64,000 nt of DNA, from NCBI RefSeq assembly GCF_963677845.1, contig NZ_OY782498.1, positions 3,603,518 to 3,667,517 of the forward strand, given 5' to 3'. Below are positions 38,946 through 44,896 of the stretch, piece by piece. Each line of letters starts with the position of its first letter. Within the stretch, counting starts at the first letter, position 1. A program made the position numbers and the translations under genes. This DNA is from an uncultured Pseudodesulfovibrio sp. (GTDB lineage Bacteria; Desulfobacterota; Desulfovibrionia; Desulfovibrionales; Desulfovibrionaceae). The notes below the pieces were generated by a model. That model did not search any database, was not told where the DNA came from, and was given only the letters and a program-made list of their open reading frames with translations.

Positions 38946-38974
38946 AAAAAAGGCGACCTTGAAAGGTCGCCTTA
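38946..38974 (-). terminator. Terminator of the distal peptidoglycan-binding gene
   Basis: AAGGCGACCTT (38951-38961), loop GA, AAGGTCGCCTT (38964-38974); on the minus strand TTTTTTCATG follows. Confidence 0.88.
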
Positions 38975-38995: not shown

Positions 38996-40222
38996 CTACA
39001 ATCCGGTCCCCTTGAAAAGAGCTTTTTGTAGTCCAAGGCTCCATTGCCCTTTGGGGAATCCGTATTTCACTGCGAAATTATCTAAAGCCTGTTTGGTCAT
39101 TGGTCCCCAGTTTTGGTCGATTGTACCTTTGTAGTAGCCAAGGTCGCGCAAACGGACCTGCATGGCTTTTACGTCTTCTGGAAAGAGAGGGTTCAGGAAA
39201 GCCGTGCCACGCCCATACGGGCCTTCGCCGGACCTTGTTTGAGGTGTTGGCGTTGGGGCGTATGCATTGACAGGTACTTTTTGTTGATGAGGAACCGGGC
39301 GATATGTCTGTTGAGGCTGATTTGTGCTCACGGCAGGAGGGGCGGTTGCAGTCTGCATAGGAGCAGACGGCCCGGAGGCGGACGGTTTGGAGTTGTATCG
39401 GGCAACATGATTTCTTTCGCGTAAATCTTGGTTGATCCCACTTCCCGGTGTGTAATAGTAATTGTTGTAAAATCGGTCACGGAGGCTGGACGGGTTGAAT
39501 TTTGCTGCGAACATGTGCACTCGCCAGCCATCATAGTCGAGATATGACTCCTGCTTTTTTGCCAGATTGTCCCGTTGCCATTGTGCTTTTTTCCGATCAC
39601 TCATGATGACTTCAAATTTGGCATCCGCAGGGAGACGGTTTTTGACGAAGGTCATAACCAGATATTTATCGATTTTAGTTTGGTCTCGTTGAGGATTGAA
39701 ACCGTATGTTTTGGCTGCATGGTAGACCGCTCCCCAATCCCCACGGGATTCAATCGGGACAGCTTGAAGAAATGTCGCATACGGGATCATATAGACTTCT
39801 AGGGTCAGTTTTGATGGAGAAGATGTTGCGGCCAAACATTGTGTGATGCTGATCTTGTCCTTTTGAACAGTGTATTGAGCCAAATATTGCAGGGTTGCGA
39901 TGCGTTCATTCGGATCGAAAAGATGGATGACACCGGCCACATCAGCTGCATAGTTGTCGCCGATACCGTAGTTTTGGCCTATGACCGGGATCGCCCCGCC
40001 ATGTTTGAAAGTGTAGAAGTACCCGTTGTTGAGGCCTTCCATATATGCATCTGCCCCGGGAATAAATGAGACAGAGCTCGGTCCTTGTTGGTTGGTGAGT
40101 TTGGCGGCTACGGCATAAGATACGGCAAGGGCATCCGGCGGCCACTCCACATCCTGTCCCATGACGGGGGAGACTGTTGTCAGGCATATCAGAAGGCTGA
40201 GAGCGAGAATGCGCTTTTTCAT
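38996..40222 (-). CDS. Exported peptidoglycan-binding protein, second copy
   Basis: 408 residues from the ATG at 40222 (GGGGGAC upstream). Signal peptide MKKRILALSLLICLTTVSPVMG. A long unassigned domain (about 30-255) is followed by a Ser/Pro/Gln/Thr-rich linker (about 270-330) and a C-terminal PG_binding_1 domain (VKAMQVRLRDLGYYKGTIDQ, GPMTKQALDNFAVKYGF). It is a full-length paralog of the lipoprotein at 41027: compare KYLVMTFVKNRL with KYFIMTFCKDRL, and the almost identical last 68 residues. Unlike that one it has no lipobox, so it should be soluble in the periplasm. Partner of the small secreted protein encoded just upstream. Confidence 0.88.
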   Translation of the reverse strand: MKKRILALSLLICLTTVSPVMGQDVEWPPDALAVSYAVAAKLTNQQGPSSVSFIPGADAYMEGLNNGYFYTFKHGGAIPVIGQNYGIGDNYAADVAGVIHLFDPNERIATLQYLAQYTVQKDKISITQCLAATSSPSKLTLEVYMIPYATFLQAVPIESRGDWGAVYHAAKTYGFNPQRDQTKIDKYLVMTFVKNRLPADAKFEVIMSDRKKAQWQRDNLAKKQESYLDYDGWRVHMFAAKFNPSSLRDRFYNNYYYTPGSGINQDLRERNHVARYNSKPSASGPSAPMQTATAPPAVSTNQPQQTYRPVPHQQKVPVNAYAPTPTPQTRSGEGPYGRGTAFLNPLFPEDVKAMQVRLRDLGYYKGTIDQNWGPMTKQALDNFAVKYGFPKGQWSLGLQKALFKGTGL

Positions 40223-40233
40223 GGTGTCCCCCA

Positions 40234-40884
40234 TTACCAAAGTTGTGTGTCTTCTTGAGTCGCCTGCGGACCAGGCATGCCATATCCGAAGCCTGAATAG
40301 TCAGGGCTCATGTTTCCTGGGGCGTCAGCCGTGCCATCGTGTCCTGTTTGGACACCTCGTGAATTGCGCATACCCATGGCCGATTTCCCGTAGGCTTTTT
40401 TTTCTTTTTCGAGTCTACGAAGGACTTCTACGGAAAGATCTACGCCTTTCTTAATACCCTCAATGGCTTTGATGGCTGTGATGATTTCCGGGTTGGATGC
40501 AAAGACGAATCCCATAATCATGTCCTGAAAGCGGCTTTGTGCTTCATTCTTTGTGTAATCAATGATGGCAACCGCGGCTTTCTCAGCGGTTGTTAGCTCG
40601 CGATGAGTGATCGGTTTTGGAGGGGTGTCTGTCCATGGACTTTGCCAGCCGTGTTCCGGGTCCATAACGGGGACGCCTTCTATTCCTATGGTGGGCTCCA
40701 TGGCCGGGCCTTTTCTTCCTGATGGTCCTCTCAGAGCAGAACCGTCGCTTCCGCCACCGTTTCCACTCCCTCCACTATCGCATCCGCTTGCCAAGAGAGG
40801 TGTGGGGGCAGTCATGAAGAAAATAAACATGATGGCACCTGCGAACCAACAGGAGAGTGCTGTAAATTGTTGGGAGAAAGACAT
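40234..40884 (-). CDS. Small exported protein of unknown function, second pair
   Basis: 216 residues. N-terminal hydrophobic signal or anchor (about 10-33), then a Gly/Ser-rich stretch (GCDSGGSGNGGGSDGS), a Pro-rich region and a helical segment about 95-160 (TTAEKAAVAIIDYTKNEAQ, IKAIEGIKKGVDLSVEVLRR). Ends Gly/Pro-rich (SPDYSGFGYGMPGPQ). No family recognised. AAGGAG precedes the ATG. Lies 11 bases upstream of the peptidoglycan-binding gene and mirrors the arrangement at 42392/41027. Confidence 0.75.
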   Translation of the reverse strand: MSFSQQFTALSCWFAGAIMFIFFMTAPTPLLASGCDSGGSGNGGGSDGSALRGPSGRKGPAMEPTIGIEGVPVMDPEHGWQSPWTDTPPKPITHRELTTAEKAAVAIIDYTKNEAQSRFQDMIMGFVFASNPEIITAIKAIEGIKKGVDLSVEVLRRLEKEKKAYGKSAMGMRNSRGVQTGHDGTADAPGNMSPDYSGFGYGMPGPQATQEDTQLW

Positions 40885-40984
40885 TTAAAGACTCCTTGTT
40901 GAAAAAAAGCTGCACCGCCAAAAATTGATATTTATAGTTGTTTTTAAGTTTATGTTTGTTGTTTTGTCTTTGAAGGAAAATAAA

Positions 40985-41016
40985 CAAAGGCGGTCCTATT
41001 ATCGGGACCGCCTTTG
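40985..41016 (-). terminator. Terminator between the two secreted-protein pairs
   Basis: CAAAGGCGGTCC (40985-40996) and GGACCGCCTTTG (41005-41016), a perfect 12-bp stem; TTTATTTTCC follows on the minus strand. The AT-rich 100 bases beyond it probably hold a promoter for the second pair. Confidence 0.88.
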
Positions 41017-41026
41017 TAGGGAGTGA

Positions 41027-42352
41027 TTACAGTCCGGTTCCTTTGAACAGGGCCTTTTGAACCCCGAGGCTCCATTGCCCTTTGGGAAAGCCGTATTTGA
41101 CGGCGAAGTTGTCCAGAGCCTGTTTGGTCAGAGGACCAAAGTTCTGGTCGATTTTGCCTTTATAGTAGCCAAGCTCTTTCAGGCGGACCTGCATGACCTT
41201 GACGTCTTCCGGGAAGACCGGGTTCAGGAACGCGCGCCCAGCACCAAGTGGTCCATCGGTAGAAGGTGCCTGCATTGCTGGGGCAGGAGCCGCTGGCATA
41301 GCGGGAGCAGGTGCGGCTGACATAGCGGGAGCTGGTGCCGCAGGCATAGCGGGAGCTGGTGCGGCTGGCATCGCAGGAGCTGGAGCCGAAGTTGCTGTGG
41401 CTGCGGCAGGTTGTGCGGCAACAGGAGCAGGAGGGGCTTCAGTGCGATCTTTTTTCACGTTGGCGAACTCACCAACCACCACGGCTGGAAGATAACCTGT
41501 CGGGTCTTGTTTGTAGGTGACGCCCACGTAGAATCTACTTCTGCTTGAGCCGGGAGTGAACTCGCCACCCGCTATCAGAATACGCCAGCCAGAGTCGTTG
41601 ATGGAAATTGCTTCGGCCAATTTTGTGCCTGCGCCATATGCGCGGCTTGTTACTTTCATGGCCAGCGAGGATTCCTGGAACAACCGATCTTTACAGAAGG
41701 TCATGATGAAGTATTTGGATTTGATGCCGGTTTTGGAACCATCTTCGCCATAGGTCATGGGTTCGGCGTTTTCAATGGCGAACAGGTAGTAGTCCATGTA
41801 ACTGGTGAGTGTGGAAGCGACAGCCTTGAATGTCTTTTCTTTGACGAAGAATGTTTCCACTCTTGGAAAGTCCGGCGGGATGCCAACTACAACGGATTTG
41901 GTGATATTGACGGATCTTTTTGTCACCACGTACTGGGCTGCGTAATAGACGCCCGCACGACGGTTGATGACATCTTTGAACAGGAATACGCCTTCAAGCA
42001 TGACCAGAACTTCACCTTGATTGAGCACGGTGGTTTCGTACCCGGTCACGGCCACGTTTTGGACGTCGAATCCCTCGTAATCAAATTCTTTTTCGCCAAC
42101 GGCATGACGGCCAGCAGGATCGAAGGTGACATTTTCCACCGCGATTTTCCCACCGCGAAGGCGTTCGAGTAAAGCCGAAGTTACCAGCTTGATGTCATCG
42201 GGAGCCTGTTCCTGTTTGACGGGAATGACCTCGGGCGTCTGCACCTTTTTAGGTGGAGGCGGTGGAGGAGTTGAACCCAGACCATCCATTTTGCAGGCGG
42301 TCAGGGCAAGGCTGAACAATACCAGAATCGTGAGAATGGTATATTTGCGCAT
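41027..42352 (-). CDS. Peptidoglycan-binding lipoprotein with Ala-Pro repeats, first copy
   Basis: 441 residues from the ATG at 42352. Lipoprotein signal with lipobox LTAC (Cys20), a Pro6 run, an unassigned domain (about 50-300), five exact-register 8-residue repeats of APAPAMPA type (323-362), and a C-terminal PG_binding_1 domain (about 378-441: VKVMQVRLKELGYYKGKIDQ, GPLTKQALDNFAVKYGF). The repeats form a flexible spacer that would let a lipid-anchored domain reach the wall. Paralogous over its length to the protein at 38996. Co-transcribed with the secreted protein encoded upstream. Confidence 0.9.
   Translation of the reverse strand: MRKYTILTILVLFSLALTACKMDGLGSTPPPPPPKKVQTPEVIPVKQEQAPDDIKLVTSALLERLRGGKIAVENVTFDPAGRHAVGEKEFDYEGFDVQNVAVTGYETTVLNQGEVLVMLEGVFLFKDVINRRAGVYYAAQYVVTKRSVNITKSVVVGIPPDFPRVETFFVKEKTFKAVASTLTSYMDYYLFAIENAEPMTYGEDGSKTGIKSKYFIMTFCKDRLFQESSLAMKVTSRAYGAGTKLAEAISINDSGWRILIAGGEFTPGSSRSRFYVGVTYKQDPTGYLPAVVVGEFANVKKDRTEAPPAPVAAQPAAATATSAPAPAMPAAPAPAMPAAPAPAMSAAPAPAMPAAPAPAMQAPSTDGPLGAGRAFLNPVFPEDVKVMQVRLKELGYYKGKIDQNFGPLTKQALDNFAVKYGFPKGQWSLGVQKALFKGTGL
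41267..41386. repeat. Five 24-bp tandem repeats inside the lipoprotein gene
   Basis: Each unit encodes APAPAMPA or a one-residue variant (S or Q at position 7). In-frame unit number could change by slippage and alter the spacer length. Confidence 0.85.
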
Positions 42353-42391
42353 ATGAATTATTACCTTGTTTTTGGACTCGCGGTGCAAGCG

Positions 42392-43228
42392 TTAAATCTG
42401 AGGTGTGCCGCCGGCAATAGGACTGGCCGGAGCGGAAGACATGGGGTCAAACGTCGGATCAGGCGAGTAGTCAGGGACCGAGGCGCGGTTCTCGGCACCC
42501 AGTATGTTGGCTGCCTGCTCCATGGCTTTGCCGATGCCCTTTTCTGCTCCGTAGTCCACACCTTTTTTAGCACCGTATCTGGCTATTGCCTTGACTGCGA
42601 CAACTGTTGCGCGTTTACGGACTTTTTTTGTGATTGCGTTACGGGCCAGATTGATTCCAGCACGGGCCGTAGAGAATGCTTTGTCTGCGTTCATTGGCGA
42701 GAATTTACCAACGAGACCGGATGCGCCTCCGCCGATAACGATGCCTTTGACGATGTCACCGGGAGCTTTGCCGTCACGGTATGCGTTGGCACCACCTCGA
42801 GCTGCACCAAGCGCGGCCGCTGTAACCCAGCCTACACCAGGAACAAAGGAGAGACCTTCCTGCGAGTACTCGCCAAGTTTGTCCAGGATTTCAAGCGTCT
42901 TGACGCAGGCATCCAACATGGCCGCTTCATTGTTGGCGGCGTTTGAGTTTTGCTCCAGAAAGACTTGGCGGATAGTGAGCAAGTCACGTTTTGTGATAGT
43001 CGAGCCAGTGAAAGCCGTTATCAAGGTGTCTTGCTGCGACGGATTGAGGTTCCCGAAGATGTCCACCAACTCACTGGGTTTCCACGGATCGATTTTTAAA
43101 TCTTTTGGTGGGCCTCCTACATCGCCGCCGCCTCCGCCGTAGGCAGAAGCCTCGGTCGGTGCAAGGAGCAGAGTGAGTGCGAGCAGGAACGCCACGACCC
43201 CATGCATACCTCTTGTCGTTTTTGACAT
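42392..43228 (-). CDS. Exported Gly-rich protein of unknown function, first pair
   Basis: 278 residues; GGGAG lies upstream of the ATG. Signal peptide about 1-29 (VVAFLLALTLLLAPTEASA), then GGGGGDVGG, a helical domain (about 45-125), a glycine-rich amphipathic/hydrophobic stretch (about 126-175: VPGVGWVTAAALGAARGGANAY and IVKGIVIGGGASGLVGKF) reminiscent of glycine-zipper membrane-inserting segments, a basic helical part and a Pro-rich tail. No family recognised. Placed between the propeller gene and the peptidoglycan-binding lipoprotein gene. A membrane-active or toxin-like role is conceivable but unproven. Confidence 0.75.
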   Translation of the reverse strand: MSKTTRGMHGVVAFLLALTLLLAPTEASAYGGGGGDVGGPPKDLKIDPWKPSELVDIFGNLNPSQQDTLITAFTGSTITKRDLLTIRQVFLEQNSNAANNEAAMLDACVKTLEILDKLGEYSQEGLSFVPGVGWVTAAALGAARGGANAYRDGKAPGDIVKGIVIGGGASGLVGKFSPMNADKAFSTARAGINLARNAITKKVRKRATVVAVKAIARYGAKKGVDYGAEKGIGKAMEQAANILGAENRASVPDYSPDPTFDPMSSAPASPIAGGTPQI

Positions 43229-43252
43229 GGTTATCTCCCGATTTGTTATAAG

Positions 43253-44896
43253 TTATCTGCCGTCTATAGCCATGGAATTTCCCTTTGCCCCCTCTGGGTC
43301 GGCAAGCTCCATAGTCTTTTGAACTACACTGTTGTCCGGCACGAATTCCGGGACCATGGCCGCCAGCTCCGGGTGGCTGAATCTGAACAGGCGTATGGCT
43401 GGGCTGGACTCTCCATTGTCATTGATGTGTGTGAGATAAATTTCAGTATATGGAGAATTGTCTTTTGAGGAAAAGGCGAGCCAACGAGAATTTGGCGACC
43501 AACTGTGCCAGGAATTCATGAGGTTCGTATTGGCTTTGAGTACGCGAGGAGAGCCTCCCTTGGCAGGAATAATGACCAATCGGCTGTCTGGCTGGAGCAC
43601 CAATCCGGTTTTGCATTGAGTGAATACAAGCCATTTCCCGTCCGGTGAATAGCGGGGGAAGAAATTGCTCATATGATTGTGGGATGCACCCTGAATAGGT
43701 GTGGCAGTGCCACCTTTGCCATTGTTGAAAGGGATAGAATAGAGATCGAATTGCATGGGGTATTTATCATTGGCATCAAGAATGGTTTGCGAGGGGTCTT
43801 CGTTACGAAGTTTGCCGTTTTTGATGTCTTTTACAAGGTTGGGTTTGACTGCAGCTCTGGCAAAAGCCATCTGTTGGCCGTCCGCTGTAAAGGCTGGATT
43901 GGTTTGGACCATTGAAAGATCATTTGCGCCATTTAAAGGCAGGACTTGTTCTGTTGTGCGGTCGTAAAAGGCGATTATACCGGTTGCAGGATAAAACATT
44001 TGTGAGAAATGGAGGTCGTCGAGCATGATGAATGCCGATGATTCTCCGACCGTGGAGGCGGCATAACGACCATTTGGAGAGAATGTGGTGAAGAGGCCCA
44101 TGCTATATTGGGAAGGGCCGGGCGCCTTATAGTCGTTCCAAGAAATAATGTCGTCATCGGTGATTGAAATCGTTTTTGATATGTCCACCAAGACATACCC
44201 ACCTTTATCTCCCTTGTAATCCATGTCCATGCCATATGTTTTCCCGTTTGCGGAATAAGCGTGGCAGTTGAAACAGATAGGTTGATCCTGCAGGATTATC
44301 CTTGGCCTGCCGAAGGATGAAAGGTCTCCTATGGCTATCTGACTGTCGTGAGGATTATCTTTGGCTTTTTTGAATGGCAGGCGTTTTCTCAAAAATCCGA
44401 TATGTGAACCGACTTGGTCATTGGATATGGCAAAGGATGTTTTTCCTATGGAATCGAGTGTGCCTGAAGTGCTGATGCCATAAATACTCACTTGGATAGA
44501 GGCGTTTCCGGCTGTGGATTTGATCTGTTTCCAGAGAATTTGGTTCGGAATCCAGTATGGAGTGTCGATAATGCCACGACAAAGGGGGGTGTCGTTTGCT
44601 GACAAGGCAATAAGCCATGTCGTGTGCAAGGCATCATTCCATCGGATAATGAGCGATGCTGCATCAGCCGGGACCAAGGCTCCGGGGAGGGGCTCCAGTA
44701 CGGGGATTGTGGAGGGCGATTCGTCGAGCGAAAATGAGCCTATCCACTCTTTGAGAGTCTGTTTTTGAGGAAGTTGGACATCAATTGATCTGAAGAGGGG
44801 ATATGCAAATATTGGTTGAGCGAAGAAGACAGTTGCCATTATGCAAGCAGTGAGCAGAAAGAAAGAATACCGGGAGAGGCGCAGGCGTTTCGTCAT
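43253..44896 (-). CDS. Exported TolB-like beta-propeller with CxxCH motif
   Basis: 547 residues. Signal peptide about 1-31. An N-terminal beta domain (about 60-160) precedes PD40/WD40-like blades (FTTFSPNGRYAAS, PAFTADGQQMAFARA, FPRYSPDGKWLVFTQ, WSPNSRWLAFSSK). CFNCH at 208-212 (QPICFNCHAYSANGKT) is a c-type haem attachment motif at the start of the propeller, with GKTYGMDMD after it; similar CHS/CHAYS-x-DGKT segments exist in other PD40 proteins. First gene of the exported cluster, 24 bases before the next. Haem binding is predicted, not shown. Function unknown, possibly an envelope sensor or scaffold. Confidence 0.85.
   Translation of the reverse strand: MTKRLRLSRYSFFLLTACIMATVFFAQPIFAYPLFRSIDVQLPQKQTLKEWIGSFSLDESPSTIPVLEPLPGALVPADAASLIIRWNDALHTTWLIALSANDTPLCRGIIDTPYWIPNQILWKQIKSTAGNASIQVSIYGISTSGTLDSIGKTSFAISNDQVGSHIGFLRKRLPFKKAKDNPHDSQIAIGDLSSFGRPRIILQDQPICFNCHAYSANGKTYGMDMDYKGDKGGYVLVDISKTISITDDDIISWNDYKAPGPSQYSMGLFTTFSPNGRYAASTVGESSAFIMLDDLHFSQMFYPATGIIAFYDRTTEQVLPLNGANDLSMVQTNPAFTADGQQMAFARAAVKPNLVKDIKNGKLRNEDPSQTILDANDKYPMQFDLYSIPFNNGKGGTATPIQGASHNHMSNFFPRYSPDGKWLVFTQCKTGLVLQPDSRLVIIPAKGGSPRVLKANTNLMNSWHSWSPNSRWLAFSSKDNSPYTEIYLTHINDNGESSPAIRLFRFSHPELAAMVPEFVPDNSVVQKTMELADPEGAKGNSMAIDGR

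What the first reader, a model, noticed from the sequence alone, without database searches (positions are those of the whole stretch)
38996..44896. Exported cluster with two successive [secreted unknown + peptidoglycan-binding protein] pairs
Five adjacent minus-strand genes all carry export signals. After a propeller protein with CxxCH come a Gly-rich secreted protein plus a peptidoglycan-binding lipoprotein, a terminator, then a second secreted protein plus a second peptidoglycan-binding protein. The two binders are full-length paralogs with nearly identical C-termini; one is lipid-anchored, the other is not. The small partners both start with a Gly-rich stretch after the signal and end with PDYS-type Pro-rich tails but are otherwise unlike. 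I know no named system of this shape. It could be an envelope-remodelling or contact-dependent device.
Basis: partly seen in the sequence, partly recalled or inferred. Interest (0 to 1): 0.75.

Follow-up and report, generated by a model that had tools for sequence, protein, structure and literature searches.

The report
Repeating secreted-protein and wall-anchor gene pairs
A sulfate-reducing bacterium carries repeated two-gene units, each pairing a very variable glycine-rich exported protein with its own partner protein that usually binds the cell wall; the units recur in related bacteria, match no family searched here, and what they do is still unknown.

Summary
Five minus-strand genes (38996-44896) carry export signals: a CxxCH PD40 propeller, then two [Gly-rich secreted protein + peptidoglycan-binding partner] pairs split by a terminator. 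The binder bodies form one homologous family (33 of 33 link). The small proteins' cores fall into 9 clusters without detectable similarity, yet all 33 have a signal peptide plus Gly-rich leader, mostly starting A-YGGG. Small-protein type follows the binder tree (9 changes, minimum 8, shuffled mean 19.3): pairs diversified as units. Searching the same genome for the A-YGGGG leader found a third, unlinked pair, whose binder is a remote relative with the wall-binding-type segment in the middle. It occurs in the same 7 of 60 genomes as small protein 2. Pairs reach other groups of the phylum. The cluster sits between fliQ and lonB, which lie side by side in 8 of 22 relatives examined. No toxin, immunity or secretion family was recognised; a TolB-box resemblance failed a shuffle test. 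Most likely role: envelope anchoring or assembly by dedicated cargo-adaptor pairs (confidence about 0.4). The unit's reality is near certain; the mechanism is inferred.

The parts
43253..44896 (-). Exported TolB-like PD40 beta-propeller with one CxxCH motif (547 aa); first gene of the cluster
   Evidence: CxxCH in 11 of 11 aligned relatives and in 84 of 84 propeller ORFs of the capped 80-locus scan
44261..44275 (-). CFNCH haem-binding-type motif of the propeller (residues 208-212)
42392..43228 (-). Small secreted protein 1 (278 aa): signal peptide, A-YGGGGG leader, variable core, PDYSPDP tail
   Evidence: no family over a cut-off
43112..43141 (-). YGGGGGDVGG leader at the presumed mature N-terminus of small protein 1
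41027..42352 (-). Binder 1 (441 aa): lipobox LTAC20, body with NTF2-like and Ig-like halves (model), Pro/Ala linker, PG_binding_1 C-terminus
41030..41224 (-). PG_binding_1 module of binder 1
40984..41017 (-). Intrinsic terminator-like stem between pair 1 and pair 2
40234..40884 (-). Small secreted protein 2 (216 aa): signal peptide, Gly-rich leader, variable core, tail ending ...EDTQLW
   Evidence: no family over a cut-off
40732..40785 (-). Gly-rich leader of small protein 2 (residues 34-51)
38996..40222 (-). Binder 2 (408 aa): exported, no lipobox, same body family, PG_binding_1 C-terminus
38999..39193 (-). PG_binding_1 module of binder 2, 88% identical to that of binder 1
38950..38973 (-). 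Terminator-like stem after binder 2

Best explanation
This is a modular cell-envelope system built from a repeated two-gene unit. Each unit makes (i) an exported small protein with a flexible Tyr/Gly-rich leader at its presumed mature N-terminus, a core that differs between units and a short tail, and (ii) its own partner: a two-part body (NTF2-like and Ig-like in the model) that in most families carries a peptidoglycan-binding domain and a lipid anchor. The partner most likely sits on the wall and membrane and captures its cognate small protein, fixing or assembling it at the envelope; the CxxCH propeller next door is a shared but optional periplasmic helper. Shown here: the conserved unit, its order, its co-diversification, export-signal patterns, the wall-binding domain, a third unit in the same genome. 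Inferred: physical binding of the partners, which segment is bound, the propeller's part, and the anchoring role.
For: Adjacency small-then-binder in all 12 regions and in 11 of 17 more distant regions. Binder bodies one family, small cores 9 clusters, in 33 pairs. Small type needs 9 changes on the binder tree, minimum 8, shuffled mean 19.3, none of 200 shuffles as low; Mantel 0.55, 0 of 2000 permutations. YGG leader in 10 of 105 signal-peptide-like ORFs of the fetched regions, all 10 pair members. The leader motif alone found a third pair in the same genome. Its binder is a remote homolog (hhalign 94.9%, E 4.3e-8; cross-hits of its profile) with the wall-binding-type segment between the two body halves, so the segment is kept while its position changes. 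The third pair occurs in the same 7 of 60 genomes as small2, with a Gly-rich small protein directly upstream in 7 of 7. Lipobox in 19 of 33 binders by pattern, two more by eye; PG_binding-type C-terminus in 22 of 33 by pattern. Purifying selection on all five genes. In the capped 80-locus scan, 12 of 15 complete propeller ORFs under 620 residues lie beside a pair member, and none of the 67 longer ones was seen to.
Confidence: 0.4

Rival explanations
1. A bacteriocin- or effector-like weapon: the small proteins are secreted membrane-active effectors with a Gly-rich translocation leader, and the wall-bound partner is the producer's immunity protein or carrier.
For: Dissimilar cores behind a common leader, each with a cognate partner, is the layout of polymorphic effectors (recalled); several cores carry a hydrophobic Gly/Ala-rich stretch, seen by eye (sequences). 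Unit number varies from one to three per locus.
Against: No toxin family over a cut-off in the 40 small proteins scanned with Pfam, only weak PHROGs matches (best 7e-4), and nothing in PADLOC for the five window proteins. Small1 is 95% and 90% identical to its two nearest compared orthologs with dN/dS about 0.045, so there is little diversification at short range.
Confidence: 0.2
2. A Tol-Pal-like device: the TolB-like propeller binds the disordered Gly-rich leader in its central canyon, in competition with the wall-binding lipoprotein, as TolB binds both Pal and the disordered translocation segment of group A colicins.
For: The trio propeller / Gly-rich exported segment / wall-binding lipoprotein resembles TolB / TolB box / Pal (PMC2821528, abstract and passages seen). 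TolB is among the propeller's weak relatives.
Against: The TolB equivalog score is far below cut-off (27.4 against 343.15 bits), and the genome has a separate TolB-like gene. TolB-box-like DG[STG]x[WLMFY] segments are not enriched in 46 leaders (4 found; 332 of 2000 shuffles reach that). Pairs occur without a propeller.
Confidence: 0.15
3. Structural outer-membrane-to-wall tethers: binders staple the membrane to peptidoglycan and the small proteins are minor stabilisers or surface material, without a specific cargo-adaptor relation.
For: Lipobox plus PG_binding_1 is a minimal tether architecture.
Against: Co-diversification of small type with binder clade and retention of the pair where the binder shows no wall-binding domain by pattern (L041, L042, L076-L078, L082, L083).
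Confidence: 0.15
4. Redox or metal handling: the CxxCH propeller is a periplasmic cytochrome and the pairs form its docking scaffold.
For: CxxCH in 84 of 84 propeller ORFs of the capped scan.
Against: Pairs occur without the propeller; no other CxxCH protein among the five genes of the cluster; haem attachment not shown.
Confidence: 0.08

Closest known systems
[quoted passage not shown]
   Same: Exported PD40 propeller, a wall-binding lipoprotein and a Gly-rich exported segment in one setting (architecture only).
   Different: Propeller fails the TolB model and carries CxxCH; the binder has PG_binding_1 and an unknown body, not the OmpA-like domain of Pal (recalled); no TolQRA-type motor genes among the five genes; the leaders show no enrichment of a TolB-box-like pattern.
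PD40 propeller with CxxCH and C-terminal TPR repeats (Planctomycetota, Verrucomicrobiota, Bacteroidota and others)
   Same: Propeller body with CxxCH; 67 ORFs of 620 residues or more in the capped scan; TPR in 4 of the 4 long ones scanned by Pfam.
   Different: The window's version has no TPR match and lies with the pairs; no pair member was detected beside the long versions.
Peptidoglycan-binding lipoproteins (PF01471)
   Same: PG_binding_1 above the curated cut-off, lipobox in binder 1.
   Different: Body of about 250 residues without a family match in Pfam or NCBIfam; in most regions examined it lies beside a variable small-protein gene.
Polymorphic effector / immunity pairs (recalled layout)
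   Same: Common leader, dissimilar cores, cognate neighbour, copy-number variation.
   Different: No toxin domain recognised; purifying selection between close relatives.

Membership tests
PG_binding_1 (PF01471) | Whole-protein score above the curated cut-off (23 bits) | tested here: met
   30.9 bits (binder 2) and 31.4 bits (binder 1)
Bacterial lipoprotein (binder 1) | Signal peptide followed by a lipobox with Cys | tested here: met
   LTAC20, (pattern only; lipidation not tested)
PD40 beta-propeller (PF07676) | Score above the curated cut-off (20.9 bits) | tested here: met
   58.9 bits
TolB of Tol-Pal (TIGR02800) | Score above the equivalog cut-off (343.15 bits) | tested here: not met
   27.4 bits; own-genome search gives 265.3 bits for a separate gene, also under the cut-off, and 23.2 for this one
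Pal | OmpA-like wall-binding domain (recalled definition) | tested here: not met
   Pfam scan of both binders up to E = 1 shows only PG_binding_1 and PG_binding_2
Group A colicin-type TolB binding | TolB box DG(S/T)GW in the disordered leader (PMC2821528, passages) | tested here: not met
   Looser pattern in 4 of 46 leaders, not above shuffles; neither window leader reads DG(S/T)GW
c-type cytochrome (propeller) | CxxCH motif | tested here: met
c-type cytochrome (propeller) | Covalently bound haem | not testable with these tools
   Needs protein
Polymorphic toxin / bacteriocin | Recognisable toxin domain | tested here: inconclusive
   Of 40 candidates one ORF (L081, not a pair member on later view) matched an outer-membrane barrel (5.6e-14); the best other Pfam match is 0.0042 (MSP1_C); one weak Pesticin match (0.026). 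PHROGs best 7e-4. PADLOC: none for the five window proteins
NTF2-like fold (binder residues 48-159) | Clear structural match | tested here: inconclusive
Ig-like fold (binder residues 160-300) | Clear structural match | tested here: inconclusive

The most novel reading that the evidence does not exclude
A previously undescribed protein-localisation system of Desulfobacterota: a YGGG-type leader at the mature N-terminus is a common address tag carried by many dissimilar exported cargos, each delivered to or held at the cell wall by its own co-evolved adaptor protein (NTF2-like and Ig-like body, usually lipidated), with the CxxCH propeller as an optional shared hub.
Probability: 0.28. Interest if true: 0.78.

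Novelty: categorically new. Interest (0 to 1): 0.57.

Why it matters
If the reading is right, these bacteria use a tag-plus-adaptor logic for placing exported proteins at the envelope that is not among the sorting signals I can recall. The leader has already predicted an unseen pair in the same genome, so with signal-peptide context it can serve as a search handle. Even if the role turns out structural, the work marks out two protein groups without an entry in the libraries searched (the binder body and the YGGG-leader small proteins) and a group of CxxCH propellers tied to them, and it gives a clear set of experiments.

Tried and rejected
Considered and rejected or set aside: (1) TolB-box-like motif in the leaders: 4 of 46, not above shuffles. 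(2) Remote common ancestry of the small-protein cores: hhalign between clusters gave 93.1% for S1 against G051 (already joined by phmmer) and 51.1% for S1 against S5; the S2-S5 hit (91.9%) rests on 14 columns and on a wrongly started row; reversed-sequence controls reached 86.6% and 74.0% in 110 comparisons, so ancestry is not shown. (3) TrbC/VirB2 pilin similarity: E 0.056 for P0004, best 0.0095 among 3 of 40, under the cut-off for P0004. (4) Leader DNA pattern as a general finder: in 199 genomes of the order it hits 65, and the backwards control shows counts of similar size (I did not sum them). Of the 30 loci returned, which are only part of the hits, one (L174, already known as G051) is a real signal-peptide leader. 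The own-genome success (2 hits, both real, backwards control 1) does not carry over without signal-peptide context. (5) AlphaFold2 of small protein 1: mean pLDDT 36.9, not used. (6) Foldseek hits for the binder that were listed are Ig-type domains with query TM 0.14-0.17; no clear whole-body relative appeared, which does not exclude one. (7) Mobile origin: no tblastn match of binder 1 among 72,556 plasmid or 50,697 phage records. (8) Papers: text searches for the parts and their combinations listed 0-2 papers each, seen as listings only and off-topic by title; two more looked for the TolB-colicin comparison. One paper was opened (PMC2821528: abstract and passages). Subscription journals are mostly not held, so absence in print is not shown.

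Rows left out of counts: searches use 33 pairs. Left out: G035 (near copy of G025), the truncated second binders of G002 and G028, the second binders of L085, L088, L089 and both of L086, the third-locus pairs, L092, L094-L096, L098, L099, L104, L107, and the solo binders L073, L074, L075, L080, L081. The enlarged set of 47 adds five third-locus small proteins, G419, G446, G020, L092, L094-L096, L098 and L107; the third-locus copies of G025 and G035 are not in it. One search also left out G006_b1. The lipobox pattern missed G051 (LCAGC) and G067 (ICGC), lipobox-like by eye. The G153 small protein was read from a start that is too early (320 instead of about 255 aa).
Full report
What is there. 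The window lies in a 3.70-Mb, single-contig genome; the nearest named relative with the same cluster in the scan is Pseudodesulfovibrio sp. OB3 (L090). On the minus strand, 38996-44896 holds a propeller, small protein 1, binder 1, a terminator, small protein 2 and binder 2. A fliQ-like gene lies upstream and a Lon-type protease gene (called lonB here; gene names recalled) downstream. All five proteins start with export-signal patterns. Both binders carry PG_binding_1 above its curated cut-off and the propeller carries PD40 repeats; the small proteins match no family over a cut-off. The binder ends are 83% identical while the bodies are far apart. All five genes evolve under purifying selection (dN/dS 0.037-0.157 where computable; small2 against G026 is saturated), less strictly than lonB and fliP (0.020-0.035).

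The pair is a conserved unit. In 60 relatives, small1 is found in 11, small2 in 7 and the propeller in 15, one of these weakly. Twelve regions fetched around hits all contain at least one adjacent small-then-binder pair. The number of pairs per locus varies: one (G007, G010, G036), two (G000, G018, G025, G026, G033), three (G006), or one plus a truncated second binder without a small protein (G002, G028). Two further pairs lie at other loci without a propeller, with binders that lack the wall-binding domain (L041, L042). A binder-body profile hits 26 of 297 genomes of the order. Of 17 further regions, 11 show an adjacent small protein; 5 binders do not (L073, L074, L075, L080, L081), and one region (L086) begins inside its first binder, its second binder having no Gly-rich neighbour. 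In a phylum-wide sample 5 of 395 genomes hit, the window's genome included. Of the four others, two of one genus, related only at phylum level, show the pair (L252, L253); one shows none (L254) and one is cut by a contig end (L251).

One binder family, many small proteins. With the first 30 residues removed and Gly-rich runs masked, 33 small proteins fall into 9 clusters at E below 1e-3, while the 33 binder bodies form a single cluster. On a maximum-likelihood tree of binder bodies the small-protein type needs 9 changes (minimum 8; shuffled mean 19.3; 0 of 200 shuffles as low); some rows have long branches. Binder and small-protein similarity correlate (Mantel 0.55, 0 of 2000 permutations). 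So pairs have diversified as units, and the two pairs of the window come from an old split: clade S1 (lipobox) and clade S2 (9 of 9 without lipobox). Species relatedness contributes to these statistics, but both clades coexist in the same genomes, so it cannot explain all of the matching.

A shared leader. All 33 small proteins, and by eye all 47 of the enlarged set, have a Gly-rich stretch after the signal peptide; in 35 of 47 it begins [AGS]YG[GND], and one more (G018_c) reads TYGGGG. As a control, 105 signal-peptide-like ORFs of the fetched regions were tested: 10 carry a YGG leader and all 10 are pair members. A DNA pattern for A-Y-G-G-G-G hit the window's genome twice (backwards control: once): small protein 1 and a new place 2.6 Mb away along the contig. 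There a 165-residue YGGGGGG protein is followed by a 343-residue lipoprotein. That lipoprotein is a remote member of the binder family (hhalign 94.9%, E 4.3e-8; the profile of its group also hits L078, L085, L093, L099 and L103), with the wall-binding-type segment between the two body halves instead of at the C-terminus (seen by eye). In 60 relatives this third binder occurs in 7 genomes, exactly the 7 that hold small2; in 7 of 7 a Gly-rich small protein lies directly upstream on the same strand. G025 and G035 are near copies and the 7 may be related, so the match is suggestive, not independent proof. The pattern is not specific across the order without signal-peptide context. S2 small proteins and those of L252 and L253 also share tails of the type [QFG]L[WMQ] (11 of 47).

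The propeller. A scan of one genome each of 84,980 species found 334 relatives and kept the best 80 loci, with 84 propeller ORFs; 84 of 84 have CxxCH. Of these, 67 are 620 residues or longer, and 4 of the 4 long ones scanned by Pfam have C-terminal TPR repeats. Of 17 shorter ORFs two run off their contigs (L100, L161). Of the other 15, 12 lie beside at least one pair member (L090-L096, L098, L099, L103, L104, L107) and three do not (Desulfoluna L123 and L148; Bacteroidota L151). No binder or small-protein hit was detected beside the long ORFs, though some loci are cut by contig ends. The propeller is not obligatory: several pairs lack it, and G022 keeps it alone beside lonB.

Where it sits. 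Of 22 same-genus fliQ loci examined, lonB lies within 1.5 kb in 8 (in one, G019, inverted), the propeller or small1 in 7, and neither in 7; one of the latter, G006, has the cluster further off. The cluster is thus an optional occupant of a fixed place; gain and loss cannot be told apart here. No plasmid or phage match was found.

Domain exchange between the paralogs. The wall-binding modules of binder 1 and binder 2 in the window are 88% identical (DNA 80%), closer than binder 2 to its counterparts in G018 (59%), G006 (67%) or G033 (73%), while the bodies group the other way. A conversion or swap of the C-terminal module in the ancestor of G000, G025 and G026 would explain this.

How it may work. 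The established parts are export-signal patterns, a wall-binding domain and lipobox in most binders, and one-to-one pairing. The simplest mechanism is that each binder holds its own small protein at the envelope, reading the flexible leader or the tail. The Tol-Pal and colicin comparison (PMC2821528: abstract and passages seen) is attractive because a propeller there binds a disordered segment in competition with a wall-binding lipoprotein, but the motif test failed and the TolB model is not met. A weapon reading is not excluded; beyond the layout nothing positive supports it.

Novelty. No family over a cut-off covers the binder body or the pair members' small proteins, and the text searches listed no paper on such a pair. 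I therefore rate the module as a kind not described in what I could search, while stressing that its function is unproven.

Noticed in passing
L239:6484-8026 (own genome, C1 about 996483-998025); also L170: A third, unlinked pair in the same genome: 165-aa YGGGGGG protein plus 343-aa lipoprotein with an internal wall-binding-type segment.
   Followed up: yes
window:38999-39193 and 41030-41224: C-terminal wall-binding modules of the two binders are more alike within the genome than binder 2's is to its counterparts in G006, G018 and G033, as after gene conversion.
   Followed up: partly
L244:8405-10066: A relative (G022) keeps the propeller alone beside lonB, with no pair between them.
   Followed up: partly
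L097-L169: A wide family of CxxCH PD40 propellers, several shown to have C-terminal TPR repeats, in Planctomycetota, Verrucomicrobiota, Bacteroidota and others; CxxCH in 84 of 84 ORFs of the capped scan.
   Followed up: partly
L098:7150-7866: Small protein with a core containing C, H and D residues in an order reminiscent of cysteine peptidases (recalled, by eye); no Pfam hit.
   Followed up: no
L088:8583-10362 and L089:8795-10585: Loci with one small protein plus two binder-type proteins, the first without and the second with a lipobox (by eye).
   Followed up: no
L249 (own genome, C1:1510312-1511544): Separate TolB-like gene scoring 265 bits against a curated cut-off of 343.
   Followed up: no
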